The notes beneath the pieces were generated by a model that was not told where the DNA came from, ran no database searches, and saw only the letters and a program-made list of their open reading frames with translations. Both the position numbers and the translations under genes were made by a program. From positions 62,001 through 126,000 of the IMG/VR virus record IMGVR_UViG_3300005613_000006: 64,000 nucleotides of DNA; one strand, written 5' to 3'. This stretch comes from a virus. Below, one piece after another: positions 2,159 through 60,103 of the stretch (position 1 is the first letter of the stretch; each line of letters opens with the position of its first letter).

Positions 2159-2361
2159 GGTTTGCGTATCACCTCTTTGAAATTGGGGTCTGGTCCCCAT
2201 TTCCAATCCCTGTTACCAGTTTGTGCATTGACAATCCAGTGGCCAGCATTGGCTTTGGCGGCAGATTTCCTTGCGCTTTCGTATCCAGCGTCGAATACCA
2301 TTACCCCTATCCAGATTAGGCAAATGACAATCGTTATTGACCCAAAAATTACATCCATCAT
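2155..2361 (-). CDS. Small protein with one N-terminal membrane anchor
   Basis: A 68-residue protein. Residues 3-24 are strongly hydrophobic and the remaining 44 are hydrophilic and basic, ending KEVIRKP. It overlaps the genes on both sides by 4 bases, so it belongs to one polycistronic unit. No family was recognised. Confidence 0.6.
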   Translation of the reverse strand: MMDVIFGSITIVICLIWIGVMVFDAGYESARKSAAKANAGHWIVNAQTGNRDWKWGPDPNFKEVIRKP

Positions 2362-3832: not shown

Positions 3833-3834
3833 CG

Positions 3835-11727: not shown

Positions 11728-12063
11728 TCAATCTTCCTTCCTGTGAATCTGCAACATACGACCATCTTGCAAAGCAATTTCTCCTGGTCTCTTTCCATGC
11801 CCACAACAACTTCCCCTCATATCAATGCCTGCGGCTTGTAGCGCGGCTACTATTGGGGCAACACATGCGTCGATTTGTGCAAATTTCCATTTTTCTTTTC
11901 CGGTACAACTTAGGTCGGCGGGAATCTTGACGTATACACCAACGGGCTGTTTTCCACATCGCTTACACGGGCGAACACCGGCTGTTTCACCTGTGTCTAC
12001 CCAGACCCATTGTGAACCATTCCACACAATTTCATGTCCGTGTGATTCGCTAGTTGCTGTCAT
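11728..12063 (-). CDS. Hypothetical phage protein with zinc-ribbon-like cysteines
   Basis: A 111-residue protein. CKRCGKQPVG near residue 34 and the conserved-looking IDACVAPIVAALQAAGI and SCCGHGKRPGEI stretches resemble a small phage protein that I have seen without known function. The HG and CC residues could bind a metal. It is not itself sugar-related and starts a short group of accessory genes within the locus. Confidence 0.55.
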   Translation of the reverse strand: MTATSESHGHEIVWNGSQWVWVDTGETAGVRPCKRCGKQPVGVYVKIPADLSCTGKEKWKFAQIDACVAPIVAALQAAGIDMRGSCCGHGKRPGEIALQDGRMLQIHRKED

Positions 12064-12542
12064 TGAAAATCTGCTTTTAATATCCTCTTGGCCGCTTCTC
12101 TATCCATCATTGCAAGGCTCAAATCTACGTTATGTTCTTCCCAGCCGTAAAAGCCAGCACGTCGCGGTTCGCCTATCCCAAATACTTTTTGAACAGCGGC
12201 TTCACTGACAATACCGTGGTCTCTAGCCAGTAGGATTTCCCTTCGAGTCTGCTCATCCATTTGGTCACACCCCCAGAGGCGCATCTCTTCCATTGCCTCG
12301 GGGCTAACGAACAAGTCGTTTAACTTTGAGGTATCTGGTTGGGGCAGCTTGGCAGTACGCTCAAGAATCTCTCGTAGCTCTTGCTTAGATAGAGTCCGAC
12401 AATCACATAGGAGACCTGGGCCAGGATTGGGGTTCCACCCATCATCAGTCACAACCACCTTCGGTGTTTCTTCGGCCTTGACCAGCGCTGCCGGTGCAAG
12501 CAGGGCAGCCACACAGGCTTTGAGAAAGTTACGTCTTTGCAT
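12060..12542 (-). CDS. Tat-type signal peptide protein, function unknown
   Basis: A 160-residue protein. The N terminus has a twin-arginine motif (RRNFLKA) followed by a hydrophobic Ala/Leu stretch and a likely cleavage site after LVKA. The mature part is hydrophilic and helical. Export by the host Tat pathway is predicted. It is a paralog in layout of the next gene (12529), so a tandem duplication of the leader is likely. Confidence 0.6.
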   Translation of the reverse strand: MQRRNFLKACVAALLAPAALVKAEETPKVVVTDDGWNPNPGPGLLCDCRTLSKQELREILERTAKLPQPDTSKLNDLFVSPEAMEEMRLWGCDQMDEQTRREILLARDHGIVSEAAVQKVFGIGEPRRAGFYGWEEHNVDLSLAMMDREAAKRILKADFQ

Positions 12543-13134
12543 GGTCTTTGTCCTTCAAAAAGTCTAACGGAAACTCAGGACAAGCCATAGGCGGAAGCCG
12601 TTGAATGTCAAACCCTTTTGTGTCCTCAACAAACTGCATGTAGTCTGCTACATATCTATCAGCGGCTTTCTGGTCCACAATCTCAATCTCCGAAGTAACC
12701 TCTACCGGAAAGTCTACCATTCGGTGGTACGGCGCGCGGCGTCCAAGTTCCCAAAGTTCTTCCCTCTCCATCTGTTCGACTGTCTTCCACTGATGGTGAG
12801 CAAGCATGTCTGAAAATTCACCATCGGGCACTATACATTTGTCAATGTCCTCCTCTTTGAAGACGGCGTTAGGGCGATAGTCTTGATATACGCGCTCACA
12901 CTCTTCCAAAAACGCTTTCAGTCCCTCGTTGGCATGGTTTGTTGCCTCGATATTCTTCTCGAAACTCTTTCTCAGCAGACTCATAGCCCGCTCAACACCC
13001 TCCCACCGTGGTTCTTTGACGTTATCCAGCACAAAATCAACTGGTGGTTCAGGCTTTGCAGTCACGGTCTTGACCAACGCTAGCGGAGCCAGCAGGGCAG
13101 CCGCCGCAGCCTTTAGGAAACCTCTTCGTTCCAT
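12529..13134 (-). CDS. Tat-type signal peptide protein, function unknown
   Basis: A 201-residue protein starting with RRGFLKAAAAALLAPLALVK, a twin-arginine signal very similar to that of the neighbour at 12060. The mature part (about residues 27-201) is acidic, helical and rich in Arg, Glu and Asp, with no recognised domain. A second exported or periplasmic phage protein is inferred. Its start overlaps the end of the next glycosyltransferase. Confidence 0.6.
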   Translation of the reverse strand: MERRGFLKAAAAALLAPLALVKTVTAKPEPPVDFVLDNVKEPRWEGVERAMSLLRKSFEKNIEATNHANEGLKAFLEECERVYQDYRPNAVFKEEDIDKCIVPDGEFSDMLAHHQWKTVEQMEREELWELGRRAPYHRMVDFPVEVTSEIEIVDQKAADRYVADYMQFVEDTKGFDIQRLPPMACPEFPLDFLKDKDHAKT

Positions 13135-14378
13135 TTGTCTATTCCTTCGATGCTGTGTTGTTGAGTTACGTCTACCAGTCTCCCCTTGCCAGACCAGTAT
13201 TGATAATATGGTCCTTTACTCCCCAGTTCTCCCTCAAGGGCTTCCTTCATTTGCTCGCCCACCGCTTGATAGGAGAAGTCATAAGCGCGGTCAATACCAA
13301 TGTCAGCCCTTTGTTTTCTTTTATCCTCCTGCTCGAACGCTTCACGCATGGCTCTCTGCAATCCGCGAATGCTGATGCTTTCCCAATTCTCGTTTCCTTG
13401 GAAAAGGTCGGGCATGATGTTGTCGGCGGTCATACCGAAACAGGGCTCTGTGTGTGTGGGAACCAACCACCCGCCCAAACCGCCACCCTTTTCTCCAGCG
13501 GGTCGGTAGATGAATTCGCTCATGCCTCCAACTTGAGAACAGATTGGAGTCTTTCCCATTGCCATAGCGTCAAACGCTGGGATACACCAGCTTTCACCAT
13601 AGGACGGCATCACGAAGCAGTCACACGTATTGTGTAGCATCATCATCTTCTGTTCGTCAAACCGTTGCGTGATGATGATTTCGCCAAGGAAATCATCCTC
13701 GTTGGGATACAGCTTCAACTCTCGTTTGATTTGGACACAGATTTCCTGCACATGTTTGTCGCACTCGCCAGCGGGCATACCGCTTAGATTAGCCTTAATC
13801 ACTAGCGTAACAGGCTCCGACTTACGGAATTCTAAATGATAGGCTTTCAGCAGAGCGGCCAAGTTCTTGCGCCTCGTCACTTCGCCAATCGTGTAGAACA
13901 CAAACTTGCCGCGAAGTTGTGGTATCTTGATTTTCTCGTAGTGACGAGCATACTTGCTTGGGTCACATGGAACTGGCATCACACGCATTGGTCTTTGAAC
14001 ATAACTGTTGGTCGAAGCGCGTAGCATTTGTTCATTGCATACCCATGCTTCATCCATCAAGTTCAATCGCTCGGCCCAGAAGGCGTTGCGGAAGTGGCTG
14101 GTTTCACTATGGAACAACCCGATATTCTTATCAAAGTGTCCACAGTAATCCATCATGTGTGGCAGTATATGTTGAATCACAACATCACAGCCTTCATCAC
14201 TCTGGGCTTCCAGTTCTACGATACGCTCTGGCACTTCAACCTCGGCGTCGTTCAACTTGATTGGTCGAGGCACAACCTCAACGCCTGCGGCATCCAGTGC
14301 GAGGATGTAGTTTTCAGCCGCGTGACTCCATCCGGTGCCATCTCGATAAACACCCAAAAATAAAACTTTATTTGACAT
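13113..14378 (-). CDS. GT4-type glycosyltransferase
   Basis: A 421-residue GT-B enzyme of normal family length. It has FYTIGEVTRRKNLAALLKAY at the start of the donor domain and HNTCDCFVMPSYGESWCIPAFDAMAMGK, the EAMA-type loop, near 260-287. It is predicted to be cytoplasmic. The HNH gene upstream ends 11 bases inside it. Confidence 0.88.
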   Translation of the reverse strand: MSNKVLFLGVYRDGTGWSHAAENYILALDAAGVEVVPRPIKLNDAEVEVPERIVELEAQSDEGCDVVIQHILPHMMDYCGHFDKNIGLFHSETSHFRNAFWAERLNLMDEAWVCNEQMLRASTNSYVQRPMRVMPVPCDPSKYARHYEKIKIPQLRGKFVFYTIGEVTRRKNLAALLKAYHLEFRKSEPVTLVIKANLSGMPAGECDKHVQEICVQIKRELKLYPNEDDFLGEIIITQRFDEQKMMMLHNTCDCFVMPSYGESWCIPAFDAMAMGKTPICSQVGGMSEFIYRPAGEKGGGLGGWLVPTHTEPCFGMTADNIMPDLFQGNENWESISIRGLQRAMREAFEQEDKRKQRADIGIDRAYDFSYQAVGEQMKEALEGELGSKGPYYQYWSGKGRLVDVTQQHSIEGIDKWNEEVS

Positions 14379-14919
14379 GTTGAGTTACCTTCTTGCACAA
14401 TGCGACGAATTCATCATGTGTTAGATTCCATTTCATCGTCTGGATTGATTTGTATATCCAATGGATGTTATTTTTAGTGTAGCCTTTAGAAGAGTCGATG
14501 CGGTCTAATGACGCCAAGTTGTCTTTTTTGTTATCTCTTTTTGTTACACCCTTGGGTAGCGTTAAGCATAAGCCAGTATATGGACAAACGCCACCTTGTT
14601 TTATCCACTGTTTCCATAAGTCTTTTGGCATCACTTTGACAGCAATATCTCGCTTATTGGCATTTCGTTGGACACGATTAAAGTATGCGCCATATATCCC
14701 TTCGTGTCCAGAAAATCCAGATGCGTTTTTACCGCGAGATAGACAACCACAGCTTCGTGTTTTGTTGCCAGTTAAGTGATACTTCTTAACTTCTGTAGTA
14801 TTGCCACATTCACATTGACATAACCACCATTCGTGTCGCTTGCGTGTTTTTGCTATTTTGATTGCTGTTAATAGACCAAACTTCTGACCAGCAATGTCTT
14901 TCCAATTCTTGTGTCTCAT
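14368..14919 (-). CDS. Stand-alone HNH homing endonuclease
   Basis: A 183-residue protein. An N-terminal zinc knuckle (CQCECGN...SCGCL) is followed by the HNH core, LDRIDSSKGYTKNNIHWIYKSIQTMKWNL, at about 140-168. GGAG lies just before the ATG. It has its own GGTGTATAAT promoter and its stop codon lies 11 bases inside the downstream glycosyltransferase gene. It is AT-rich compared with both neighbours. Confidence 0.85.
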   Translation of the reverse strand: MRHKNWKDIAGQKFGLLTAIKIAKTRKRHEWWLCQCECGNTTEVKKYHLTGNKTRSCGCLSRGKNASGFSGHEGIYGAYFNRVQRNANKRDIAVKVMPKDLWKQWIKQGGVCPYTGLCLTLPKGVTKRDNKKDNLASLDRIDSSKGYTKNNIHWIYKSIQTMKWNLTHDEFVALCKKVTQHVK

Positions 14920-14954
14920 TGTACTTCTCCGTGTTGATGTAATGTACCCAATAT

Positions 14955-14964
14955 ATTATACACC
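14955..14964 (-). promoter_or_regulatory. GGTGTATAAT promoter of the HNH gene
   Basis: TTTGGTGTATAAT on the minus strand, about 36 bp before the ATG at 14919. There is no clear -35 box. Confidence 0.7.
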
Positions 14965-14983
14965 AAACTACGGACTGGGGACA

Positions 14984-15406
14984 TTATTTGAGAACCTCAA
15001 GAACCTCATCCATGTTGATGCAAATATGGTCACACATTTTGACCATCAACTCTGGTTCACCATTGTCCAAAAGTAGGATGGTGAACTTGCCAGCCCCGGC
15101 TCCCCAACCCAGTTCAAGCGAAGCCGACCGACCAAACGGCTGTACCGCCACGATAGTGTCGCACCATTCCAGCGCGTCCATGTCTCGCGCGAAACCGAAT
15201 TCTGCAAGGTGGTGCGTCAATTTGTCCCGATACTGTTCCGGTGTCCACGACTGCCAGTCTGGGTCAATTTGTGACCAATGAAATCCGCTGTCGCCTTGAC
15301 GTGGATGGCGGAAATCGTATACATCATGCCCAGCGTTGTGAAGTAGTCGCACTACTTCGGGTTGGCGTTCATTGCGCCATGAACTTGCTACGTAAATCTT
15401 ACTCAT
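14984..15406 (-). CDS. Nucleoside 2-deoxyribosyltransferase-like protein
   Basis: A 140-residue protein. It begins IYVASSWRN, the usual first strand and loop of this family, and has FARDMDALEWCDTIVAVQPFGRSASLELGWGAG at about 78-110, where the family has its catalytic Glu and substrate loop. Family members move deoxyribose between bases or hydrolyse nucleotides, so a role in nucleotide salvage or base modification is plausible. A neighbouring Nudix hydrolase supports a nucleotide role. Confidence 0.75.
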   Translation of the reverse strand: MSKIYVASSWRNERQPEVVRLLHNAGHDVYDFRHPRQGDSGFHWSQIDPDWQSWTPEQYRDKLTHHLAEFGFARDMDALEWCDTIVAVQPFGRSASLELGWGAGAGKFTILLLDNGEPELMVKMCDHICINMDEVLEVLK

Positions 15407-15407
15407 G

Positions 15408-15833
15408 TTACACCTGTGCGTGAAATGGGTCTAGCCCTTGGTCTCGTAAAATGGCACAGCCTTGCATGAGCGGGGCGGGCACATGTTCCCACCTGTACCA
15501 ATCCCAATACTCACACTTGTCTTTCTCCATCACTTTCGGTTCTCCCTCTATGTAATCACAAACATAGAAGAGAACTACGTAATGTTTTCCTTCGTCGTAA
15601 AAGCGGGTGTTGGTCATCGCCCAAAACTTAGGATGAGTAACCTTTATATCTTCCCCGGCCTCTTCGCGTAGCTCTCGAATGGCTGTCTCGGCAGGGTCTT
15701 CCCACATTTCCAAGTGGCCTCCAGCAAAGGCGTGAGTCCCTGGCGCATGGTCCCCTTTACGTTTGTGCATCAGCACACTACTATCCGAATGACGACGAAC
15801 CACACACGCAACTCCAACTAATGGCCTATCCAT
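15408..15833 (-). CDS. Nudix hydrolase
   Basis: A 141-residue single-domain protein. The Nudix box reads GHLEMWEDPAETAIRELREE plus AGE, matching the G-x5-E-x7-REUxEE pattern completely, at about residues 39-61. It hydrolyses a nucleoside diphosphate linked to another group; the substrate is unknown. Nudix hydrolases in sugar loci may act on nucleotide sugars. It overlaps the large glycosyltransferase by 8 bases. Confidence 0.9.
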   Translation of the reverse strand: MDRPLVGVACVVRRHSDSSVLMHKRKGDHAPGTHAFAGGHLEMWEDPAETAIRELREEAGEDIKVTHPKFWAMTNTRFYDEGKHYVVLFYVCDYIEGEPKVMEKDKCEYWDWYRWEHVPAPLMQGCAILRDQGLDPFHAQV

Positions 15834-17571
15834 TACTTGCTTCCTTTTTGTTAGCGATGAACAACGGCTTCGACATTGCCAGTCTTGCTGTCCTTCTTTC
15901 TTCCCACTTCGTATCCAACTGATTGTAATGTATCATCTTGTGAACAGCATCTTCCGCAGTGAACGGAAGATAGTGGTTCTTGTTTGCCAACAGACTACCC
16001 TCGTTGAACTTGGTGTCACCAGTATCAGTAATGGCAAAGCCGTAGTTCAAGTCTCGCATCATCTTGAGGGCCGCATAGCTGGTTACCATGTCTGGCCGTC
16101 CCCAAATGTTGGCAAAGCCCCATGTTACCAGTTGCTCGTAGCTAAGCCCCTGTGGTATCTTCAAATCAGGCTGGTGAATGCGAGCGGGCGAGTCCCATGT
16201 CTTGGCTTGGTCGGGCACTTCCAGACTGTCAAAGTATTTTTCCCATACCTTGGCTGTCTTATCCCACGAATAGTGTTTTCGCGCAGCTTTATATGTCTCG
16301 CGACCCCTTTTCAACCTCATTGCTTCTGGCTGGCGCAGAAACTTGGACAACTGGGTTATCAAGTCTCGGTTGTCAGGCACAGCCCGGTACGCATGTGTCT
16401 CAGATTCGCGTGTGACACACAAGGGCTTAATCGGAATGCCCTTGACGTTGCGAAGCACAGACGACATAGCCGAATAATCAACGGCCATGATGGGCACACC
16501 ACAGGCGGCTGCTTCCAACTGGGGCATACCGAAGCCTTCACAGATGGAGTATTGTACATACACGTCCATTACGTTGAGTATGTCGGACAGTTGTTCTTTA
16601 CTCACGCCAGCTTGAGTGCTGGGCAACTCAGCCTTGGGTCTACCGCAGTTGAGACAGGTCGTCCTGGCGTCTTGGAAGAACAGCGGTTGTACATTTCCAC
16701 AGTGGCTACACACATAGGTGAATAGAACTTTGTGGCCAAGGTGTTCCTCTCGCAGCAAACGTGGCATGTCCCAACCTATATCGGGATAGCTCGTATGAAT
16801 GTAGAGAAATGTGCGGTCGGCCAACGCCGGGTTTTCTTCCAGCATGATGCGGAATGAACGAAGCAACTCAGCATACATTTTGCGCTTCTGGTTCCGCATA
16901 ACGGTTCCTACAATCAGCACCTTGTCTTTGAAGGCCATCATGGACTTGTGCTGGGCTTTGTTGCGCACTGGTTTCAGCACATCAAAGTCGGCGGCTGGCG
17001 GCGCAAGGGCAAACACCTTGCCGATTCTAGCGTTTTGAATCTCGGTGTTCCAGGCGGTGCCGGGCACAACAATCTCTTTGCCTTCCAATACATCGCGACC
17101 AAATTCGCTGTAAGCACACAAGGCATCGGCGTTGCGGTAGCTGTATACCCAACGGTCGGGCAGCGGCGCAGAGTCAACTGTGGGCATGATTACCCACTTG
17201 TAGAAGTCTCGGAACGGAGAATGCTCTGCAAACTCCATCATCCACCAATCGCGTATGTCCCACACCACGTCTGGTCGGAAGTCCAAACAGGTTTCCTCGA
17301 ACTTCCAGCATCCGAACTGGTTTAGATTGCTGGCAAGGTAGGTGTCTTCATCGTCGGGCGTGTCGGGCAAGTTACCATAGAACGTCCAGGGGATGCTTAG
17401 CCGTCGCTTGTCATTCCAGTGTCCGTAGCTAGCCAACTCTGCTATCTCGTACTTGCCAGTCTCATGTAGACGAGACAATACCTCTCGGTCGTATACTCCA
17501 TATCCTGTGTTGAGGTAAGCCGCCTCACCGCACCAGAGTATCCTAAGTTTCCTTTTGTTCTTCGTCGTCAT
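15826..17571 (-). CDS. Large glycosyltransferase with an inserted zinc ribbon
   Basis: A 581-residue GT4-type protein. The N-terminal domain begins LRILWCGEAAYLNTGYG. KVLIVGTVMRNQKRKMYAELLRSF starts the donor domain. A zinc-ribbon-like insert (CSHCG...CLNCG) lies at about 295-320, and YSICEGFGMPQLEAAACGVP is the donor loop. It is about 200 residues longer than most of the family, with an extra helical C terminus. It is upstream of all the other sugar genes on this strand. Confidence 0.82.
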   Translation of the reverse strand: MTTKNKRKLRILWCGEAAYLNTGYGVYDREVLSRLHETGKYEIAELASYGHWNDKRRLSIPWTFYGNLPDTPDDEDTYLASNLNQFGCWKFEETCLDFRPDVVWDIRDWWMMEFAEHSPFRDFYKWVIMPTVDSAPLPDRWVYSYRNADALCAYSEFGRDVLEGKEIVVPGTAWNTEIQNARIGKVFALAPPAADFDVLKPVRNKAQHKSMMAFKDKVLIVGTVMRNQKRKMYAELLRSFRIMLEENPALADRTFLYIHTSYPDIGWDMPRLLREEHLGHKVLFTYVCSHCGNVQPLFFQDARTTCLNCGRPKAELPSTQAGVSKEQLSDILNVMDVYVQYSICEGFGMPQLEAAACGVPIMAVDYSAMSSVLRNVKGIPIKPLCVTRESETHAYRAVPDNRDLITQLSKFLRQPEAMRLKRGRETYKAARKHYSWDKTAKVWEKYFDSLEVPDQAKTWDSPARIHQPDLKIPQGLSYEQLVTWGFANIWGRPDMVTSYAALKMMRDLNYGFAITDTGDTKFNEGSLLANKNHYLPFTAEDAVHKMIHYNQLDTKWEERRTARLAMSKPLFIANKKEASNG

Positions 17572-17926
17572 CTTCTTTTTTCTTTCTGACTAAAGCAAGT
17601 CCTATATTGCTAGGGAAGTCAAACTTCTCTATCCGAAACACAATCTTGCTGATTGTCTGTCCAGTCTTCTTGTCTTCGTAGATGTTGTTCCGCGCAGACG
17701 AGTCGTTGACGATAAGCACGTCGCCTTTGTGACAGTATTGCACAATGACCTCTGCCGCGCTGTCCCATATCTCAAAGTCCAGAAAGTTGACCTTAGATTT
17801 ACCCTTGAATCTGCGTTGTACCGCCAAGGTGAATCGTGCGACACATGTATCGTCACCATCATCCTTCTCGATTCTACGCAGGGCTGGGTCTGCGGTAAAG
17901 CGTCCTATAAATGTGCAGTTGTTCAT
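17543..17926 (-). CDS. ssb: Single-stranded DNA-binding protein (SSB)
   Basis: A 127-residue OB-fold SSB. It starts MNNCTFIGRFTADPALRRI, has VARFTLAVQRRF and VNFLDFEIWDSAAEVI in the usual order, and a strand-rich end. The C-terminal tail is highly charged (KKKEDDDEEQKET) but lacks the terminal DDIPF seen in bacterial SSBs, so it may not dock host SSB partners. Its gene opens the replication module next to the split polymerase. Confidence 0.9.
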   Translation of the reverse strand: MNNCTFIGRFTADPALRRIEKDDGDDTCVARFTLAVQRRFKGKSKVNFLDFEIWDSAAEVIVQYCHKGDVLIVNDSSARNNIYEDKKTGQTISKIVFRIEKFDFPSNIGLALVRKKKEDDDEEQKET

Positions 17927-18456
17927 TACGACATGTCTCCCTGACAGACCCTACATACTATGTTATAACCCACCAATACTCCATATTGGTCTGCCGCTTG
18001 CAAGAGACCGTCAGAAAAACCATTCTGATATGCTTGTTGAATCAATGCTTTCAACGCCTTCTCTTTCTCTAACATCTCTGGCGTTTCTTCATCGCCCCCA
18101 TCTATGCCCCTTAAAAGTGTGCCTTCATCTACCTCAGTATCATCAATGAAGTATTTCAACAACGTCGCGTTGTATTGTAGATATGAGCAACAAAAGATGG
18201 TATCACAAATTATGCAGGACTTTCGTGCATAAGGTGGACATTCAATGTCGAAACCGTCGCGCAACTCTTCTCCATGCCAAGCCTGTATGGATATACCCTC
18301 GGGAGTTAGCTGGTAGTCCCGTCTAAATCCATTGCTGCGCGGCTCTAAGAGGCGCGGCGGATAGTAGAATGAACACCCAGCCTGTGTGAGTTTCCCATAG
18401 ACATAGTAATCATGGTCTTGTAGGAGTTGCTGTGCTGCTTTGTGGTAGTCTTGCAT
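17926..18456 (-). CDS. Hypothetical protein
   Basis: A 176-residue protein with seven or more cysteines (KSCIICDTIFCCS near the middle, CRVC near the end) and a helical C terminus. The cysteine spacing suggests metal binding. It overlaps SSB by one base and lies just after the polymerase C-half, so it belongs to the replication operon. No function is recognised. Confidence 0.55.
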   Translation of the reverse strand: MQDYHKAAQQLLQDHDYYVYGKLTQAGCSFYYPPRLLEPRSNGFRRDYQLTPEGISIQAWHGEELRDGFDIECPPYARKSCIICDTIFCCSYLQYNATLLKYFIDDTEVDEGTLLRGIDGGDEETPEMLEKEKALKALIQQAYQNGFSDGLLQAADQYGVLVGYNIVCRVCQGDMS

Positions 18457-18492
18457 ATCTTATAGTACCAGCCAATCCAGCCAAATATAAAG

Positions 18493-20214
18493 CTAAATCT
18501 GCCAAACTTTCTCGATAATCGAGGAGTCACTTGAGTTGCTTCGCTTTACTTGTATGAGGACTGTATTGCCCTGATACAGAAGACTTTGTGCCATCTTCCA
18601 CTTATCGGGGAAACACACAAGGTCGTCCAAAGCACAGGTGTTGTCTTCGGCGGTTATAAACGCCATCGCTTGCCCAGGAGTCTTGCCGCGTTTGGTGAAG
18701 ACCTTCTTCACATTCGTAATCTCCACGGCCACCAGCATATAGTCGGCCTTGGCCCCCTCGGCTATTTCCTTGCATGTGTGATTTGCTTTACTCGCATCCA
18801 TGCATCCATCTACCCTACTGTACGTAATCCCTGCACCCAGATAGCGTTCTTCGTCAAACGCGATTTCGTCTGGCGGGTCTTCCAGTGAGTTTGGAGGACA
18901 CTGCAACAGATTGCGAATACTTAGCACCACGTCTACCCGCTTGGCCGTATGACAACCGCCGCCTTCCTTTTTAGTGCGGGCACAGTCAGTCAGCGCATGA
19001 GCAAGACTAGGCCAATGTTGTATTGCCGTATCTCCGTTCTGATAGTCTTCTACCATCCAAGGATACTGCCGTTGCACAACCCAATCGCGTTCCTTATCTG
19101 TCAACTGGCTCCATCGCGCTATCTCAAACTTCATGCGACGGCGCGGAACACCTAAGAAGTCTATTGCTCCCGCCGCAATAAGGGCGACGTTAACAGTCGA
19201 AGGAATCTTATCCGAGAAGTACATCAGGTAGTCTTCCCAGGTCCAATCCTTGACGTTCTTTCGCAGAATAAGTTCTGCCTCTTTGACGTGGCGATGCAGC
19301 CTATTCAGCGCCGCTTCACCCACCTGTTTGATGTTGGAGAGGCCAAAGCGCAACTGGTCGTCAACAATATGAAACTCTTCCTGACGAGTTCGCAAGTCTG
19401 GTGTGCAGATGTTGATACCAGTTTGTCTGGCGTCAGAAACCAGTTCCTTAATCTCGGCAAACTTGTCTTGTTTCCAAGCAGAGCCGCGTAGATATGAACA
19501 GTAAAACTGTAGAGGCATGTGGGCCTTGCAGTATGCTGACCAGTATGCACCCTCGCCATAGCAAACGGCGTGAGACTTGTTGAAGCTGTATCGCTGTGAC
19601 TCTCGAATCCACCCAAAGATTTCCTCGGCTTGTTCTGGATTGACGATGCCGGTCGCTTTGCAGCCGTCAATGAAACCCCCTTGCACCTTGGCCATAACGT
19701 CGGCTTTCTTCTTGCCGATGGCTTTTCTCAACACGTCAGCCTCTTGCTCATTAAAACCAGCCAGCGCCACGGATATTTTCATGGCCTGTTCTTGGTACGT
19801 TAGTACCCCATAGGTCTTGTTCAGCAATGGCTCTAGTGATGGATGGAGATACTCGACCTCTTCCAACAGATTCTTGCGGTCGGCGTATCGTTGGGTCATG
19901 GACTTGGGTGGGTCTCCACTCATAGCACGAAGACAACCGGGGCGCAGCAGAGCTACGAGAGCCCCGAGGTCTTCCAACGAGGTCGGCTGCACCTTCTTTG
20001 CCCAGATTTTGCCCAAGTGTCCTTCCAACTGGAAGATACCCTTAGTCTGACCTGATGCGAATAGTTGCCATGTGCGGGGGCAATCAAAGGGAATCTGGAA
20101 AATGTCCACGTCACACAGGGGTAACCTGGGGATTGCCTCGTATACTTGCATGTCGGGGGCTTCGGGGTCCACTATATTGAACGCACACCCACAATCAAAA
20201 TGTACTTTACCCAT
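18493..20214 (-). CDS. dnaE: DNA polymerase III alpha subunit, C-terminal half (split gene)
   Basis: A 573-residue separate gene that begins where the polymerase domain continues after its catalytic part. KGIFQLEGHLGKIWAKKVQP, LVALLRPG, GVLTYQEQAMKISVALAGF, DVLRKAIGKKK and RYSFNKSHAV follow in the order of bacterial DnaE. It carries the fingers and downstream region but none of the three catalytic aspartates, which are all in the N-half at 21941. A real ATG and an 8-base overlap with the exonuclease gene show it is translated on its own. The two halves presumably assemble into one enzyme. Confidence 0.9.
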   Translation of the reverse strand: MGKVHFDCGCAFNIVDPEAPDMQVYEAIPRLPLCDVDIFQIPFDCPRTWQLFASGQTKGIFQLEGHLGKIWAKKVQPTSLEDLGALVALLRPGCLRAMSGDPPKSMTQRYADRKNLLEEVEYLHPSLEPLLNKTYGVLTYQEQAMKISVALAGFNEQEADVLRKAIGKKKADVMAKVQGGFIDGCKATGIVNPEQAEEIFGWIRESQRYSFNKSHAVCYGEGAYWSAYCKAHMPLQFYCSYLRGSAWKQDKFAEIKELVSDARQTGINICTPDLRTRQEEFHIVDDQLRFGLSNIKQVGEAALNRLHRHVKEAELILRKNVKDWTWEDYLMYFSDKIPSTVNVALIAAGAIDFLGVPRRRMKFEIARWSQLTDKERDWVVQRQYPWMVEDYQNGDTAIQHWPSLAHALTDCARTKKEGGGCHTAKRVDVVLSIRNLLQCPPNSLEDPPDEIAFDEERYLGAGITYSRVDGCMDASKANHTCKEIAEGAKADYMLVAVEITNVKKVFTKRGKTPGQAMAFITAEDNTCALDDLVCFPDKWKMAQSLLYQGNTVLIQVKRSNSSDSSIIEKVWQI

Positions 20215-29820: not shown

Positions 29821-31300
29821 TGTCATCATCCTTTGGTGGTTCAAACGGAACGTCTTGGGAGTCGTCTACTGCTCTCTGTTGAGCTAATCGTTTCAAGTTG
29901 CTGCGTGTGTCTCCCTCGTATACCTTCCCGAATTTCCCCTCAAAGAAAATGTTGATGTAGTCCCCACGTTGCATTCCTCCTCCATGTCGGGCTTTAACCA
30001 CAACCATCTTGCGATTGCCGTGGTGTAATCCCATGTCGGCAATCTCTTCATCGCTCTTGCATTTGAAAATGGCACAGTTGGTTACCAACCACAAGAGTCG
30101 GTCGCTGCCAGCAATCACTCCAGAATGTTCACCGTCGATACCATCACGGTTCAGTTGTGTGAATGCTCCAATGGAAATGTCGTGACGTACCGCAAAGTTG
30201 TGCAACGCGGTAATCATAAATCCAAGTTGTTGGTATTCGGCAAGGTTACCGTGTAGCTTCATGCCATCCATCAGTTTCAGATAATCATAGATGATAACGC
30301 ACGGTAGGCGGTTACCGTCTTCGTCAAAACCCACGTTCTTCTTAATCCACCGTCGCATAACGGCAATCGAGTCCTCAAAGCTGCGGCCAGATATATTCAG
30401 GTAGTGATATGGAATGTTTTCCAAGTCCTCCTGTGCTTCTCTGACCTTCTGTCTCTTTGAATCGCTGAAAGAATACTTGCCGGTCTCCACTTCATTGATG
30501 GTAACACGACCACCACTCCCGTAGACCAGATTGGGAATAAGGCGCGCCCAATGGTCTTCATCGGCCATTTCCGTATCCAGTTGTAGGACTGGAATACCCA
30601 GTTTCTTCGCAATGTGCAAAGCGATGTTGTCAGCCACCATCGTTTTGCCCACTCCCATTCGAGCCCCTATAAGGGATACTGTCTTACGTCGCCAACCCCC
30701 ACCAATAGCTGCATCGTACAATGGAAAGCCGGTACTGATGCCAACCATTTCGACCGGATGCGCTTCTATGTGGTCGAGAAAGTCATTCAGACCGTCGCTA
30801 ATTGGGTGTGGGTCTCGACTATCCACGTCCTGCAACAACAGCGTGAAGTCCAGCACGGCGTTCTCCGCAATCCCGATAATCTCTTCGATAGGTTCGCGGC
30901 CACTTATTTCCTCAAGGCTAATGCCAGCCTGTCGAAGTTGTTCGTGCATCAGGCGAGCAACGTGCAACTTGCGAATCTGCCCAGCCCACACCCTTACATT
31001 CTCCACATTGATTACGTTCTCGGCAAACAGGCCACGCAAGTGACGCTGTTCCTCTGGTTTCTCGAATAGGCTTGTGTATCCCAGATGCTCCGCTGCCGAT
31101 ATGACAGACGCAGCATCTATCGTTGACAAGTTCTTCTCTTCGTATAGGTATTTGAAACAGTTGTACAACGCCTGATTGGTTGTATCTGTAAACGTGTCTG
31201 CCTGTAGGAAATCAGCCACGTCTAAATAAGCATCTTCACCACAGTGGAAAAGACCGCTGAGTACAGCGAATTCCGACTTCAAATCCGTCAACCTATTCAT
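29774..31300 (-). CDS. dnaB: DnaB-like replicative helicase
   Basis: A 508-residue RecA-fold helicase. It has an N-terminal helical domain (about 1-170), then GISTGFPLYDAAIGGGWRRK, Walker A SLIGARMGVGKT near 213, LQLDTEMADEDHWARL, and Walker B CVIIYDYLKLM near 340. FTQLNRDG and ARHGGGMQ follow in DnaB order. It unwinds DNA at the fork. The acidic C-terminal tail (PPKDDDNETPPGE) extends past the core. It is coupled to the primase. Confidence 0.92.
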   Translation of the reverse strand: MNRLTDLKSEFAVLSGLFHCGEDAYLDVADFLQADTFTDTTNQALYNCFKYLYEEKNLSTIDAASVISAAEHLGYTSLFEKPEEQRHLRGLFAENVINVENVRVWAGQIRKLHVARLMHEQLRQAGISLEEISGREPIEEIIGIAENAVLDFTLLLQDVDSRDPHPISDGLNDFLDHIEAHPVEMVGISTGFPLYDAAIGGGWRRKTVSLIGARMGVGKTMVADNIALHIAKKLGIPVLQLDTEMADEDHWARLIPNLVYGSGGRVTINEVETGKYSFSDSKRQKVREAQEDLENIPYHYLNISGRSFEDSIAVMRRWIKKNVGFDEDGNRLPCVIIYDYLKLMDGMKLHGNLAEYQQLGFMITALHNFAVRHDISIGAFTQLNRDGIDGEHSGVIAGSDRLLWLVTNCAIFKCKSDEEIADMGLHHGNRKMVVVKARHGGGMQRGDYINIFFEGKFGKVYEGDTRSNLKRLAQQRAVDDSQDVPFEPPKDDDNETPPGEVQGLPEAE

Positions 31301-31303
31301 CCA

Positions 31304-32062
31304 CTAATCCCTTCCAGCTTTGCCACCCTTCGCGCAACAATCGTTACACTTATACCTGTTGTACTCAGGATTGCGGTTGTATCCTGTTGCCAATGAGGCG
31401 GCGATTTTCTCTTTCTTTCCACACCCTTTACAGGTTACACTAACTTTCTTGCTGGTGTCGGGCGCTTCGCTATCGCTGCTACGGCCCGTTGCCACCTGGA
31501 CGCCTAGTGGTTTACCCTTCTCGTCGTGAGTATGTTTTGTCACGTCTTGACGAGAGAACGCACGGCGGTCGTCCTTAAATTTGTTCTTCCGCTTCCCTTG
31601 CTTGGGCTTGCGGAACGGCTCTCGTTTGCACTTCTCTCCTAGTTCTTCATTGCTTCCCTTGAGTGCATCGTTGGTGCCATCGCCCTTGGTCCTAACAACA
31701 CAATCCGCAAACTCTTCGGGAATCTCTTCTTCCTCTACTTCGTTCCCTGGTTCCAAGTCCTCTTCATCATATTCAATGTCGTGTATCAGTTGAATACCGT
31801 GTGCCGCATTAGACCCTTCTTCCTCTTCCTCTTCTTCTTCCGGCTGTCGCAACTCGGGCGGTAGCTGCATTCCTGGCAATCCATCGGCGGCAACAGGCGT
31901 CGGCTGGATTGGTAACTCAATGTCTATATCCATGTCGGCCAACAACTGCGCCTCTGTCTTCGGTGGCGACAGTGGCTTTCCTGTAATCGCCGTATACACC
32001 TTGCAGACTGCCTCCCAGTCCTGCTGTTCTACAGCTATCTTTAACACATCTGGTAGTTTCAT
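31304..32062 (-). CDS. Hypothetical acidic protein with C-terminal zinc ribbon
   Basis: A 252-residue protein. A short helical N terminus is followed by long acidic low-complexity stretches (Glu runs at about 75-120), a basic linker (KPKQGKRKNKFKDDRR) and a zinc ribbon (CKGCGKKE...CNDCC) at the end. It lies between the DnaB helicase and another unknown gene, so a helicase-loading or DNA-bridging role is possible but unproven. Confidence 0.5.
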   Translation of the reverse strand: MKLPDVLKIAVEQQDWEAVCKVYTAITGKPLSPPKTEAQLLADMDIDIELPIQPTPVAADGLPGMQLPPELRQPEEEEEEEEGSNAAHGIQLIHDIEYDEEDLEPGNEVEEEEIPEEFADCVVRTKGDGTNDALKGSNEELGEKCKREPFRKPKQGKRKNKFKDDRRAFSRQDVTKHTHDEKGKPLGVQVATGRSSDSEAPDTSKKVSVTCKGCGKKEKIAASLATGYNRNPEYNRYKCNDCCAKGGKAGRD

Positions 32063-32568
32063 GTTCTCGCTCCCTTCGCTCTCTGCAACGCTATGAATGA
32101 TTCGGACAACGAACGTAGCTGCTGTGGGACAAACGACAAAAGGTCAAGCCGTAGTCGCGTGTCCATTAGTGCTTGTTGAAACTTCATCGCTACGTCGTCG
32201 CCCTTGATTGCTGCTGCTCTCTTGTGTTCTTTGGACATAAACTGACTGTACTGTTCTACGGTGCTTGCAACACAAAAGTCAATGGATTCCTTGCACCAGT
32301 TGAGCCGGGCGGTCAGTCTGCCAATTTCTAATTGTATGTGGAGAGCGGATTGGTTGAGGATGGCCGAGGCTTCCCCGCACTCTTCTTGGTTTAGCTTACG
32401 TATTTGGGCAGGCGTCATGTTAATGAAGCGCTCTACCTCGTTCTGAACCGAAGGGTATCCCAACCCAACTTTTCGATGGTACTCGGTGAAAATTTCATCA
32501 AGCTCCTTCAACCTCTGTTCCACCTTCGACCGATTCTTCTCCCTCGATTCGTCGCTGCCACTCATCAT
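32059..32568 (-). CDS. Hypothetical coiled-coil protein
   Basis: A 169-residue, almost wholly helical, charged protein (KVEQRLKELDEIFTEYHRKV, QEECGEASAILNQSALHIQ). It overlaps the acidic protein by 4 bases and the Vsr-like gene by about 70 bases. Its position between replication genes suggests an accessory replication role. No family is recognised. Confidence 0.5.
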   Translation of the reverse strand: MMSGSDESREKNRSKVEQRLKELDEIFTEYHRKVGLGYPSVQNEVERFINMTPAQIRKLNQEECGEASAILNQSALHIQLEIGRLTARLNWCKESIDFCVASTVEQYSQFMSKEHKRAAAIKGDDVAMKFQQALMDTRLRLDLLSFVPQQLRSLSESFIALQRAKGART

Positions 32569-56374: not shown

Positions 56375-56459
56375 GGGTGGGAACGGCAGTCTCGCACTGC
56401 TATCTGTGGCGTTTTCGTTTTCTCGAACCGCTCTCGCTACGCGGAACCTCACCCACCCA
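56375..56459 (-). ncRNA. Four-way-junction RNA of tRNA size, no tRNA identity
   Basis: GGGTGGG/CCCACCC (7 bp) closes three arms: CCGC/GCGG, TTCG/CGAA and GCAGT/ACTGC. It has no recognisable anticodon arm or T-loop. It fills the slot between two Arg-type genes. In the neighbouring stretch 56262-56374 I see only weak pairing and make no call. Confidence 0.4.
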
Positions 56460-56461
56460 AG

Positions 56462-56533
56462 CAGGCCATCGAGGTTACGCTCCCCGTCTAAACGCTTAGA
56501 AGGCGCTTGTGCTGTCTATCACACTCATGGCCC
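56462..56533 (-). tRNA. tRNA-Arg-like cloverleaf (anticodon TCT), non-canonical core
   Basis: 72 nt. The acceptor GGGCCAT/ATGGCCT pairs fully, the anticodon stem AGCGC/GCGTT has loop CTTCTAA, and G73 is followed by CT. The D-loop is identical to that at 56190 (GATAGACA) and the T-loop is AGCGTAA. Confidence 0.7.
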
Positions 56534-56557
56534 GAATTACTCGAACCTGGGAAAAAT

Positions 56558-56567
56558 GGTGTATAAT
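56558..56567 (+). promoter_or_regulatory. GGTGTATAAT promoter of the plus-strand HNH gene
   Basis: AAATGGTGTATAAT on the plus strand, 40 bp before the ATG at 56607. Confidence 0.7.
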
Positions 56568-56606
56568 ATACTGAGGTTCCATTCTTTCAACAGTAGGAGA
56601 TTACCG

Positions 56607-57056
56607 ATGAAATGCCTAAATTGCCTCAAGGAAACACCAAATCCCAAGTTTTGTTCTCGTAGTTGCGCCGCTACCTACAACAATCGTAAACACCCAAAGC
56701 GCAAACCCGAGCATAAATGTACTATTTGTGGCGAACGCATAACCGCTGGTCGCTCACGATGCTCCCAACATCGTATTGGTCGTGACATGACCCTAGCGGA
56801 AGCAATCTACACCCAACATCATCGCAGCAGTGCCTTTGCGTTGGTACGTTCCAGAGCTAGAAAAGTTGCCCTGCAACTCGGTCGTACTACCTGTCAACAC
56901 TGCGGTTACAATTTACATGTTGAAGTTTGTCATCGTAAACCTATTGCAGACTTTCCAGAGGACACATTATTGAGTGTTGTCAATCATCCTGACAATCTAA
57001 TAGTTCTGTGTCCAAATCACCATTGGGAGTTTGACAACGGTTTATTACAACTGTAG
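56607..57056 (+). CDS. Stand-alone HNH homing endonuclease, antisense in the tRNA array
   Basis: 149 residues from MKCLNCLKET after AGGAG. The N-terminal knuckles CLNCLKETPNPKFCSRSC and CTICGERI are followed by CQHCGYNLHVEVCHRKPI and LCPNHHWEFDNG, an HNH core. Its stop codon touches the 3' end of tRNA-Arg(ACG) on the other strand. The N-terminal pattern matches the gene at 49532. Confidence 0.83.
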   Translation: MKCLNCLKETPNPKFCSRSCAATYNNRKHPKRKPEHKCTICGERITAGRSRCSQHRIGRDMTLAEAIYTQHHRSSAFALVRSRARKVALQLGRTTCQHCGYNLHVEVCHRKPIADFPEDTLLSVVNHPDNLIVLCPNHHWEFDNGLLQL

Positions 57057-57127
57057 TAGCCCTTGGGGGAATCGAACCCAACCCATCCAGGTTTCGTAGA
57101 CCCGGTGCTAAATCCATTAGAAAGGCT
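57057..57127 (-). tRNA. tRNA-Arg (anticodon ACG)
   Basis: The acceptor AGCCTTT pairs with AAGGGCT, the anticodon stem CGGGT/ACCTG has loop CTACGAA, the T-loop is TTCGATT, and A73 is followed by CT. The T-stem has two mismatches. A34 would be read as inosine after modification. Confidence 0.85.
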
Positions 57128-57137
57128 ATAGTAAATC

Positions 57138-57201
57138 AGAATGTTTTCGTAGAAAATGGCGACTAGGTTCGGAAAGACGGCGTATGTTGCACCAGCATTC
57201 T
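57138..57201 (-). ncRNA. tRNA-sized RNA element, unassigned
   Basis: AGAATG (57196-57201) pairs with CATTCT (57138-57143) and encloses 52 bases that include TTTTC-TAC-GAAAA. There is no anticodon arm. It fills the whole space between tRNA-Arg(ACG) and a damaged tRNA. Confidence 0.35.
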
Positions 57202-57202
57202 A

Positions 57203-57265
57203 GGCGGGGAATTGAACCCCGAACAATTCTTTTATAGAGAACATGTAGTCTTATCCAGGCATTCG
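57203..57265 (-). pseudogene. Damaged tRNA gene
   Basis: An intact T-arm (CGGGG-TTCAATT-CCCCG) and an anticodon arm (GTTCT/AGAAT, loop CTATAAA) are present, but no matching 5' acceptor strand can be found. It is a tRNA remnant, perhaps of tRNA-Tyr. Confidence 0.45.
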
Positions 57266-57269
57266 CCAG

Positions 57270-57342
57270 TGGTACATCGAGGAGTCGAACCTACGCACAA
57301 CTGCCTTATCAGGGCGGTTCGCACAACCGGCGCGCATGTACC
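57270..57342 (-). tRNA. tRNA-Ile (anticodon GAT)
   Basis: The acceptor GGTACAT pairs perfectly with ATGTACC, the anticodon stem CCGCC/GGCAG has one mismatch and loop CTGATAA, the T-loop is TTCGACT, and A73 is followed by CT. Confidence 0.85.
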
Positions 57343-57344
57343 AT

Positions 57345-58011
57345 AGTACGCACAACAGGTTGCACGTACTGTATAATAAATAGTGCCTATCACAAGTTCT
57401 CGGCAAAATCCGCGAGTGACTGGAGGTTTAGTATAGCGACAGTATTTCATGTACTCCATCTGTGAACACGGTAGTGAACCGCTTCACCCGCTTTGTCCCT
57501 GTTGTTGGGCGCTACCCCTCGCAACAGCACGACACTAGAGTGACACCTGTTCTGGGGTTCTCTCAGTGTAGTTGCAAGCTACCCTTGAGTCACTCCACAC
57601 AATCCTGCCACCCTCGGGCGGTAGCCGGTCTGTGTCCCTTTCGGGTTGGCGGTCTCGCCTTTCGGCTTGACCCGTAGACACTTCCAGTTGTCACACCCGC
57701 ATTTTAGGGGTTACCCCCATTTCCCGAGACTTGTTTATCTATTGCATAAATAGTCTGTAATCCGGTACTTCTGATAAATACGGAAAATCCACTATTCCTT
57801 CCAGTAGTATTCCATGAAAGGCCATGACTCTTACGTTCCGGCTACTCGGGCATTTCGTGGCACCCATACCACTTATCACCCACGCTACACGTTCCGTTGC
57901 CTGGGGTGTAACCCAGCCGTCAGAAACACGCTCTCGCATATTGGTCGGCAAGCCGACCGCCGTTCGCCCCGGTTAGGCAGAACAGTTTGAAAACCCTGCG
58001 ACAAAGGGTTT
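57345..58011 (-). ncRNA. Large ornate structured RNA (about 670 nt) in the tRNA array
   Basis: No credible protein gene lies here. On the minus strand many stems can be drawn: AACCCT/AGGGTT at the 5' end, GGTCGG-CTTG-CCGACC, CTGGG/CCCAG, GGGG-GTAA-CCCC, GCC-GAAA-GGC, CCC-GAAA-GGG, CTGTTG/CAACAG, a long-range GAGTGAC/GTCACTC, and GTACG/CGTAC at the 3' end. Three GNRA tetraloops appear only on the minus strand, which fixes the orientation. It fits exactly between tRNA-Cys and tRNA-Ile. Size, place and GNRA loops recall the GOLLD and ROOL phage RNAs; it may be one of them or a new class. Confidence 0.7.
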
Positions 58012-58013
58012 AG

Positions 58014-58084
58014 AGACAGCAGGGGGAATCGAACCCTCAAGTTACGGTGTTGCAGACCGCACGCCCGCCATGAGCATCACTGTC
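58014..58084 (-). tRNA. tRNA-Cys (anticodon GCA)
   Basis: The acceptor GACAGTG pairs with TGCTGTC (two wobbles), the anticodon stem GCGGT/ACCGT has loop CTGCAAC, the T-loop is TTCGATT, and T73 is followed by CT. Confidence 0.88.
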
Positions 58085-58289: not shown

Positions 58290-58361
58290 TGGCTCCCTTC
58301 GGACTTGAACCGAAACCTAACGCCTTAAGAGGGCGCAATGCTACATTGACACCAGAGAGCC
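58290..58361 (-). tRNA. tRNA-Lys (anticodon CTT)
   Basis: The acceptor GGCTCTC pairs with GGGAGCC, the anticodon loop is CTCTTAA, the T-stem TTCGG/CCGAA has loop TTCAAGT, and A73 is followed by CT. The HNH gene upstream ends 21 bases inside it on the same strand. Confidence 0.9.
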
Positions 58362-58808
58362 TTTGATTTTACATAAATGTTTTTTGTATACCTTTACCAA
58401 TCCAGCGTGGACTTTACGATGACAGTTAGCACAAATAACTGCGCACTTTCTGATTTCATCAAACACCTTGGGGCTTTTGTTGCGTGTCATTCGAGACACG
58501 CTTTGTTCCTTTTTGGTACTGTCTAGGTGATGAAAGTCTAAACATACAGGCTCGTTCTCACCACATAAACAACAAGTATTATCTTGTTTGATGTCGTTGA
58601 TTCGCTGCACAAACTTTTGCCGTTGTTTAGCAGCCCGAAGCGATGCTCTCTTGTCTTGTTTTTCCAAACGCTGATAAGAAGCGATAGCACCTTGCTTGGC
58701 ACAAATTTTACAGTACGAATGTCGGCCATCTTTGGTCGAGGCATTTTTATAGAATTCCGTTAAGGGCTTGGTTGCCCCACATTTGCGGCATTGTTTTGAT
58801 GTTGTCAT
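58341..58808 (-). CDS. Stand-alone HNH homing endonuclease within the tRNA array
   Basis: A 155-residue protein. The N-terminal knuckles CRKCGATKPLTEFYKN and YCKICAKQGA are followed by CCLCGENEPVCLDFHHLD and CAVICANCHRKVHAG, a compact HNH. It has its own promoter and its stop falls in the 5' part of tRNA-Lys(CTT), so mRNA and tRNA share bases. It separates two tRNA-Lys genes. Confidence 0.85.
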   Translation of the reverse strand: MTTSKQCRKCGATKPLTEFYKNASTKDGRHSYCKICAKQGAIASYQRLEKQDKRASLRAAKQRQKFVQRINDIKQDNTCCLCGENEPVCLDFHHLDSTKKEQSVSRMTRNKSPKVFDEIRKCAVICANCHRKVHAGLVKVYKKHLCKIKGSLVSM

Positions 58809-59099: not shown

Positions 59100-59360
59100 T
59101 ACGCACACGCTAAACTCTACGTCCCAATGGATTACGAACGCAAAACCGTGTGCGTCGATGGCATTCGCCATCCAAAGAGTCCTGACTGGTTCGCCTTCTG
59201 TGTTTATCCCTTGCAGCAACCCATAGGTGTCGCTTCAACTGCAAGGCCCAGTATCTCTCACCGTACATCTCAGGGCTGTTGCCAACCACGTTCGTCAGCT
59301 TACACCCAGGCTTTCGAGGCCCCCATCGGAAGACTACGGACTGCCGTTTTCTGGACTCAG
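59100..59360 (-). ncRNA. Second structured RNA (about 260 nt) in the tRNA array
   Basis: On the minus strand GAGTCC (59353-59358) pairs with GGACTC (59177-59182), closing a domain of about 180 nt that contains the 8-bp stem CCTTGCAG/CTGCAAGG (59209-59246). Next come the hairpin GATGGC-GAAT-GCCATC (59157-59172) and a domain closed by CGCACAC/GTGTGCG (59102-59154). These domains fill the space between tRNA-Ala and tRNA-Ile with almost no bases left over. Small open frames crossing it have no credible start or motif. I do not recognise the class. Confidence 0.6.
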
Positions 59361-59428
59361 TGGAGCGACGGGGACTCGAACCCCGCCTCCGACCGTGCAA
59401 AGGTCAGGTCTAGCCCTCTAGCCACCCC
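59361..59428 (-). tRNA. tRNA-Ala (anticodon TGC)
   Basis: The acceptor GGGGTGG pairs with TCGCTCC (three wobbles), the anticodon stem TGACC/GGTCG has loop TTTGCAC, the T-stem CGGGG/CCCCG has loop TTCGAGT, and A73 is followed by CT. It is the first gene after the island promoter. Confidence 0.85.
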
Positions 59429-59449
59429 TTTTTGCTCGTCGTACAAGGT

Positions 59450-59477
59450 ATTATACACCGGGAATTCGGTTTGTCAA
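59450..59477 (-). promoter_or_regulatory. Main tRNA-island promoter: TTGACA-N16-TATAAT
   Basis: TTGACA (59472-59477) and TATAAT (59450-59455) on the minus strand, 16 bp apart, with GGTG before the -10. The -35 overlaps the stop codon of the FkbM gene. It should drive the island from tRNA-Ala to the terminator at 56108. Confidence 0.85.
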
Positions 59478-60103
59478 CCAACTTTTTGAAGATTTTCATG
59501 GACAAACCAAGCATCCCAGCCAACTTCCCTCATCCAGGTGTATCCCTTATCCCTCAGAAAAGTGGTAATATCCTCCAAATACTTGCGGTCTCGCCCCTCA
59601 TGGCAGTTGTGTTCCACGGTGATAATTCCAAACACCCAGGTCCAGTCGTAGGATTTCAGAATGTCTAGCTCCGAGCCCTCTGTGTCGATGGACAGGTAGT
59701 TAACGTAGGAAGGAGCGCCGTGTTCGGCCAGGAGGTCATGTAACGTGACGCACGGAATCTCCACTTCCCTCCCAAACTGCTGTCTTTCTTTCTGATACGG
59801 CTGGTCGAGGTCAACAAACTCTGAAATGGTGGAGCAAACACCACCAGAAAAATCAACCTCGGTGAACTTCACGGTTCCGTTGTGGGTCCACACAGCCCGC
59901 TTGTCCCTCTTGCATGTACGCCCGAACTTGTCGTATTGTTCGTCGTTTATCAACGGGTCCACGCAAATTCCTTGCCACCCCGCCTCGTCTAACAAAAACG
60001 AGTTGCTGAAATGCTCCGCATGGCTTGCGCCGACCTCCACATAGAAGCCCTCGTTCCCTACTTTCTCCAACACGAACTTGTCCTGTCCTAACTGACTAGG
60101 CAT
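59474..60103 (-). CDS. FkbM-family methyltransferase
   Basis: A 209-residue protein. GFYVEVGASHAEHFSNSFLL is the SAM loop, ICVDPLINDEQY motif II, and YLSIDTEGSELDILKSYDW the FkbM signature. It probably methylates a sugar or similar hydroxyl group. It overlaps the sulfotransferase upstream by 8 bases. Confidence 0.87.
   Translation of the reverse strand: MPSQLGQDKFVLEKVGNEGFYVEVGASHAEHFSNSFLLDEAGWQGICVDPLINDEQYDKFGRTCKRDKRAVWTHNGTVKFTEVDFSGGVCSTISEFVDLDQPYQKERQQFGREVEIPCVTLHDLLAEHGAPSYVNYLSIDTEGSELDILKSYDWTWVFGIITVEHNCHEGRDRKYLEDITTFLRDKGYTWMREVGWDAWFVHENLQKVG

What the first reader, a model, noticed from the sequence alone, without database searches (positions are those of the whole stretch)
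57345..58011. A ~670-nt ornate RNA inside the phage tRNA array
A 667-nt stretch with no credible gene fits exactly between tRNA-Cys and tRNA-Ile. On the minus strand it offers at least nine hairpins, including GGGG-GTAA-CCCC (57707-57718), GCC-GAAA-GGC (57657-57666), CCC-GAAA-GGG (57636-57645) and GGTCGG-CTTG-CCGACC (57943-57958), plus long-range GAGTGAC/GTCACTC. The GNRA loops exist only in the orientation of the tRNAs. GOLLD and ROOL, two very large phage RNAs of unknown function, are known to sit beside phage tRNAs. This is either a diverged member or a new class.
Basis: partly seen in the sequence, partly recalled or inferred. Interest (0 to 1): 0.9.

Follow-up and report, generated by a model that had tools for sequence, protein, structure and literature searches.

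The report
Lone RNA-like gap in phage tRNAs
A 670-base stretch with no protein gene sits inside a phage's cluster of transfer-RNA genes and probably encodes a folded non-coding RNA, but it has no known relative, is not one of the two giant phage RNAs it was compared to (GOLLD and ROOL), and its folding signal is only moderately above background.

Summary
The 670-nt interval exists: 57343-58012 lies exactly between intact tRNA-Cys and tRNA-Ile on the minus strand, without a credible gene, in a 172.9-kb phage record dense with tRNAs. The quoted hairpins are there.

The excess structure is real but modest. On the tRNA strand 0 of 200 shuffles fold as well (z about -3.3; plus strand about -1.7). 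Coding windows of the same phage average -1.6, and 2 of 22 reach -3.3. A phage K gap I take to be a reported tRNA-linked lncRNA reached -5 to -6. The GNRA excess is not significant, and the 3' 40% has no local signal.

It is not a detectable GOLLD or ROOL. No homologue turned up in phages, plasmids, about 90 kin phage records, or scans with sequence patterns and two single-sequence covariance models, so covariation is untestable.

Best reading: a lineage-specific non-coding RNA co-transcribed with the tRNA operon and released by tRNA processing (about 0.5). Main rival: non-functional spacer (about 0.32).

Better supported, next door: a YrlA-type Y RNA candidate (57153-57269) right after tRNA-Ile, a second at record 140052-140190, and a Ro60/TROVE gene in the same phage. 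Myxococcus phage Mx1 carries a Ro60 gene and a Y RNA with the same stem plan.

The parts
57343..58012 (-). 670-nt candidate non-coding RNA filling the gap between tRNA-Cys and tRNA-Ile
   Evidence: No gene; fold z about -3.3 on this strand, 0/200 shuffles; no Rfam match
57991..58011 (-). 5'-end hairpin AAACCCU-TTGTCGC-AGGGTTT directly after tRNA-Cys; competes with a weak long-range closing stem (with 57388-57401)
   Evidence: sequence; pairing probabilities
57844..57985 (-). 5' domain: five predicted hairpins, including GGTCGG-CTTG-CCGACC (57943-57958) and a GAGA-loop hairpin (57925-57942)
   Evidence: pairing probabilities mostly >=0.9; local z -2.5 and -1.8 in the two overlapping windows, controls -0.5 +/- 1.1
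57597..57718 (-). central domain: GGGG-GTAA-CCCC, GGTC-AA-GCC-GAAA-GGC-GA-GACC, CCC-GAAA-GGG and an imperfect 39-nt hairpin
   Evidence: local z -1.9 to -2.6
57414..57595 (-). possible long-range helix GAGTGACT (57588-57595) with AGTCACTC (57414-57421); alternative partner GTCACTC at 57538-57544
   Evidence: MFE/MEA; not significant by itself
57345..57370 (-). 3'-end 11-bp hairpin AGTACGTGCAA-CCTG-TTGTGCGTACT just before tRNA-Ile; no U-run, so not an intrinsic terminator
58013..58084 (-). tRNA-Cys(GCA), upstream neighbour
   Evidence: ARAGORN
57269..57342 (-). tRNA-Ile(GAT), downstream neighbour
   Evidence: ARAGORN
57153..57269 (-). YrlA-type Y RNA candidate next to tRNA-Ile (separate element, not part of the 670-nt stretch)
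   Evidence: Rfam YrlA full-length 17 bits, sub-threshold; terminal GGCGA/TCGCC stem, 5-nt/7-nt internal loop; second copy and Ro60 gene in the same record
59450..59477 (-). perfect sigma-70-type promoter match (TTGACA-16-TATAAT) just upstream of tRNA-Ala(TGC), first tRNA of this unit
   Evidence: 12 of 12 matches; consensus match only

Best explanation
The stretch is a lineage-specific, long structured non-coding RNA of the tRNA operon. Inferred mechanism: transcription starts at the consensus promoter upstream of tRNA-Ala (59477-59450), possibly reinforced by a second promoter-like site at 58861-58832, runs through the tRNAs and reads through 57343-58012. Processing of the flanking tRNAs (3' maturation of tRNA-Cys, RNase P cut at the 5' end of tRNA-Ile) releases a ~670-nt RNA with a hairpin at each end, which folds into at least two domains and acts as a free RNA during infection, in the manner of the tRNA-linked GOLLD, ROOL and phage K RNAs. 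Shown here: position, strand, lack of coding, modest strand-specific folding excess. Inferred: transcription, processing, stability and any function.
For: Exact fit between two intact same-strand tRNAs. No coding signal in a genome that is roughly 83-90% covered by ORFs. Minus-strand folding better than all 200 shuffles, plus strand weaker; local signal in the 5' and central domains. 12/12 promoter match at the head of the tRNA unit. Precedents: GOLLD inside a 32-tRNA cluster with an HNH gene in mycobacteria (PMC6582537), two abundant lncRNAs near tRNA genes in phage K (PMC9241854), an ~800-nt non-coding transcript in ICP1 (PMC7567579). A control gap in phage K next to tRNA-Asp, which I take to be one of those lncRNAs, has no Rfam match at gathering score and shows the same strand bias, only stronger.
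Against: No homologue anywhere: phages and plasmids, kin phages by blastn, local nhmmer, single-sequence covariance models, five pattern scans of viral contigs. Folding z lies within the range of coding windows of the same phage (2 of 22 as low) and is weaker than the phage K control (-5 to -6). The last ~280 nt show no local structure signal. GNRA excess not significant. No expression data.
Confidence: 0.5

Rival explanations
1. Non-functional spacer: DNA left between tRNAs after insertion, deletion or decay in a fast-changing tRNA array (mobile HNH genes lie on both sides at 56406-57056 and 58341-58808); its folding energy is ordinary for this phage.
For: Coding windows of this phage reach the same z; no conservation in kin; HNH endonuclease genes nearby; the kin phages whose tRNAs were counted have 0 to about 25 tRNA genes against 41 here, so the array turns over fast.
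Against: ORF-free gaps this long are rare in the record; folding excess is on the tRNA strand; no tRNA or gene remnants found in it.
Confidence: 0.32
2. Highly diverged GOLLD or ROOL RNA that forms a multimeric cage.
For: Right size (ROOL env-120 is 659 nt; PMC12286853) and right place (tRNA islands).
Against: No match to either model in the whole record at E<=10 nor at E<=10 in an all-Rfam scan of the stretch alone.
Confidence: 0.05
3. Long untranslated or regulatory leader of the downstream tRNA-Ile / Y RNA unit (promoter, attenuator or processing elements) rather than an independent RNA.
For: 11-bp hairpin directly upstream of tRNA-Ile; AT-rich TATTTATTATACAG next to it; the 3' part lacks local structure.
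Against: The scan found no promoter-like or terminator-like site inside the interval.
Confidence: 0.08
4. One or more very short, unrecognised protein genes.
For: ORFs of up to 66-75 aa exist, as in random sequence.
Against: Codon scores near zero or negative, longest ORF equal to the shuffle mean; no Pfam matches.
Confidence: 0.05

Closest known systems
ROOL RNA (Rfam RF03087)
   Same: Large RNA of about 660 nt from phages, near tRNA genes
   Different: No covariance-model match here; no family, covariation or expression known here
GOLLD RNA (Rfam RF02032)
   Same: Large RNA in phages, often in tRNA islands; in mycobacteria inside a tRNA cluster with an HNH endonuclease gene (PMC6582537)
   Different: No match; GOLLD members often exceed 800 nt and have a universally conserved 3' region (PMC12286853)
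Staphylococcus phage K lncRNAs (PMC9241854)
   Same: Long non-coding stretch next to tRNAs, strand-specific folding excess, no Rfam match at gathering score
   Different: The phage K lncRNAs are reported as abundantly transcribed; the gap examined here (assumed to be one of them) folds more strongly against shuffles (z -5 to -6)

Membership tests
GOLLD (RF02032) | Covariance-model match at or above 150 bits | tested here: not met
   No match in the record at E<=10; none in all-Rfam scans. No positive control was run
GOLLD (RF02032) | Location in or next to a phage tRNA island | tested here: met
   Between tRNA-Cys and tRNA-Ile
GOLLD (RF02032) | Transcript rising during lysis; 14-mer cage | not testable with these tools
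   Needs RNA-seq and cryo-EM
ROOL (RF03087) | Covariance-model match at or above 99.1 bits | tested here: not met
   No match in the record at E<=10; none in all-Rfam scans. The control genomes did not ring, so this rests on the model search itself
ROOL (RF03087) | Length about 580-660 nt, near tRNAs | tested here: met
   670 nt between two tRNAs
Any structured RNA family | Covarying base pairs among homologues | not testable with these tools
   No homologue found
Any structured RNA family | Folding energy outside the background of the same genome | tested here: inconclusive
   z about -3.3; 2 of 22 coding windows as low
Bacterial Y RNA, YrlA (RF02553) | Rfam match for the 670-nt region | tested here: not met
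   No YrlA match in 57343-58012; the neighbour 57153-57269 is the candidate

The most novel reading that the evidence does not exclude
57343-58012 is the first seen member of a separate class of large structured phage RNA, unrelated by sequence to GOLLD and ROOL, made by processing of a tRNA operon that also carries a Y RNA, in a phage that encodes Ro60.
Probability: 0.25. Interest if true: 0.72.

Novelty: new member of a known kind. Interest (0 to 1): 0.4.

Why it matters
Large phage RNAs that travel with tRNA islands (GOLLD, ROOL, phage K lncRNAs) have no known function. A further, unrelated one would suggest that tRNA-rich phages repeatedly acquire big RNAs, and pairing it with a phage Ro60/Y RNA set would point to a shared RNA-handling role. 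As a single sequence it is a candidate, not a demonstration.

Tried and rejected
GOLLD/ROOL membership; RF01998 was searched by mistake in place of GOLLD. Homologues by blastn in phages and plasmids. Kin phages via the 774-aa protein of record 30234-32555 (I treated it as a portal protein, but it has no PHROG match) and via a glycosyltransferase profile, then blastn of whole records: the weak hits examined are short chance matches, for example L131 inside a coding ORF. Pattern scans CCGAAAGGCGAGACC, CGAAAGNNGAGACNNNNAANNCGAAAG, GGAAATNNNNGTAANNNNTAAAATG, CAACGGAACGTGTAGC, CCACGAAATGCCCGAG: matches had no flanking similarity. Single-sequence covariance models R1 and R2 over kin and Myxococcus phage Mx1; one hit in G013 (E 0.009) lacks the key hairpins. 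A kin phage with a 25-tRNA array (G086) has gaps that are short ORFs or differently structured. tRNA relics, intron or ribozyme: no Rfam match at E<=10. Genome-contig scan for a host: one MAG contig only.

Full report
What is there. The window is part of a 172,878-bp virus record with 41 tRNA genes by ARAGORN, most on the minus strand in the right half. Between tRNA-Cys (58013-58084) and tRNA-Ile (57269-57342), both complete and on the minus strand, lie exactly 670 bases. The order along the minus strand is: promoter match TTGACA-16-TATAAT (59477-59450), tRNA-Ala, tRNA-Ile(TAT), tRNA-Met, tRNA-Lys, an HNH gene, tRNA-Lys, tRNA-Gly, tRNA-Cys, the 670-nt interval, tRNA-Ile(GAT), then a Y-RNA-like element.

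Is it a gene? No protein signal was found. The longest ATG ORF equals the mean of shuffles, codon scores lie below those of the phage's own genes, and each frame holds at least five stops. No Pfam match for the ORFs scanned.

Is it structured? On the tRNA strand the minimum energy is -239 kcal/mol against about -216 in shuffles; none of 200 shuffles reached it, z -2.9 to -3.7 by batch. The plus strand gives about -1.7. But 22 coding windows of the same phage average -1.6 and two reach -3.3 or lower; an earlier run with 86 windows on both strands and fewer shuffles gave mean -0.9, s.d. 1.2. Local windows show signal in bases 1-175 and 246-455 of the RNA and none beyond about 386 when taken on their own. 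The GNRA hairpins are as stated, but 26 of 400 shuffles have as many. As a yardstick I took the gap next to tRNA-Asp in Staphylococcus phage K, which I take to be one of its reported lncRNAs: z -4.9 to -6.4 with the same strand bias, local mean -1.45, and no Rfam match at gathering score. The present interval is therefore suggestive, weaker than that control.

Is it known? Scans against 4,227 Rfam families, down to E<=10 on the stretch alone, give nothing. GOLLD and ROOL models find nothing in the record. No positive control for ROOL or GOLLD was run, so the exclusion rests on the models themselves.

Does it have relatives? Searches by blastn in phages and plasmids, in about 90 kin phage records reached through a 774-aa protein of the head-gene region (no PHROG match; 42-53% identity) and a glycosyltransferase (up to 54%), by nhmmer and by two single-sequence covariance models found none. 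Five pattern scans of 2.9 million viral contigs gave no matches or only matches without flanking similarity. Without relatives covariation cannot be tested.

How it most likely works. From the anatomy I infer read-through transcription in the tRNA unit and release by the enzymes that mature the flanking tRNAs, giving a ~670-nt RNA with a hairpin at either end. Literature offers close parallels: GOLLD within a 32-tRNA cluster with an HNH gene (PMC6582537), phage K lncRNAs near tRNAs (PMC9241854), an ~800-nt ICP1 transcript (PMC7567579). What such RNAs do is unknown; GOLLD and ROOL form RNA-only cages (PMC12286853). Whether this one assembles is untested.

What lies next door. Directly after tRNA-Ile, 57153-57269 aligns end to end with the YrlA Y-RNA model at 17 bits, sub-threshold, and folds into a 6-bp terminal stem, a 5-nt/7-nt internal loop and an inner stem. 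A second copy at record 140052-140190 scores 26.8 bits, E 1e-4; its predicted minimum-energy fold differs. The record encodes a Ro60 protein (vWA_Ro60 3.6e-21, TROVE 1.4e-7). The closest cultured-phage Ro60 found is that of Myxococcus phage Mx1 (44%), whose tRNA array also holds a YrlA match (E 3e-6) with the same stem/loop plan and a changed but paired terminal stem (GCCGA/TCGGC). Of 15 virus records of this group and Mx1 searched, only this phage and Mx1 carry the Ro60 vWA domain. Control genomes also ring weakly with the YrlA model, so the case for the Y RNAs rests on the combination of ends, fold, second copy and Ro60 gene. Phage TROVE proteins are known (PMC7824862). The 670-nt interval itself has no Y-RNA match.

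Verdict. A plausible but unproven large non-coding RNA, not a detectable GOLLD or ROOL. I score it as a candidate further member of the loose group of tRNA-linked phage RNAs.

Noticed in passing
window 57153-57269 (minus); record 140052-140190 (minus): Two YrlA-type Y RNA candidates inside the phage tRNA array, both beginning GGCGAATG and ending GTCGCC with a T-arm-like tRNA mimic inside; the first is adjacent to the finding.
   Followed up: partly
record 156923-158494 (L049:16923-18494, minus): Ro60/TROVE-domain protein, 44% identical to the one of Myxococcus phage Mx1; not found in the 14 kin phage records searched.
   Followed up: partly
record 156507-156922 (L049:16507-16922, minus): 416-nt ORF-poor gap directly downstream of the Ro60 gene with strong folding excess on the minus strand (z about -4 to -7 in small shuffle sets) and no Rfam match; its end looks tRNA-like by eye.
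   Followed up: partly
L049:6342-6441 (record 146342-146441, minus): wcaG RNA (RF01761, 47 bits, above cut-off) wedged between tRNA-Ala and tRNA-Glu.
   Followed up: no
window 57056-57130 (minus): A tRNA-Arg(ACG)-like sequence missed by ARAGORN, by eye complete.
   Followed up: no
window 59360-59772 (minus): ARAGORN's tmRNA call overlaps an FkbM methyltransferase gene (59474-60103) and is probably only the tRNA-Ala(TGC) at 59360-59428.
   Followed up: partly
L283 (IMGVR_UViG_3300009481_000010, bases 1-20000): A kin phage with about 25 tRNAs plus a genuine tmRNA match (13674-14009, 76 bits) in its array.
   Followed up: partly
L045:10234-12555 (record 30234-32555, plus): A 774-aa protein next to the terminase, without PHROG match, has over 600 relatives in viral contigs but none in the cultured-phage collection: a large uncultured phage group.
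   Followed up: no
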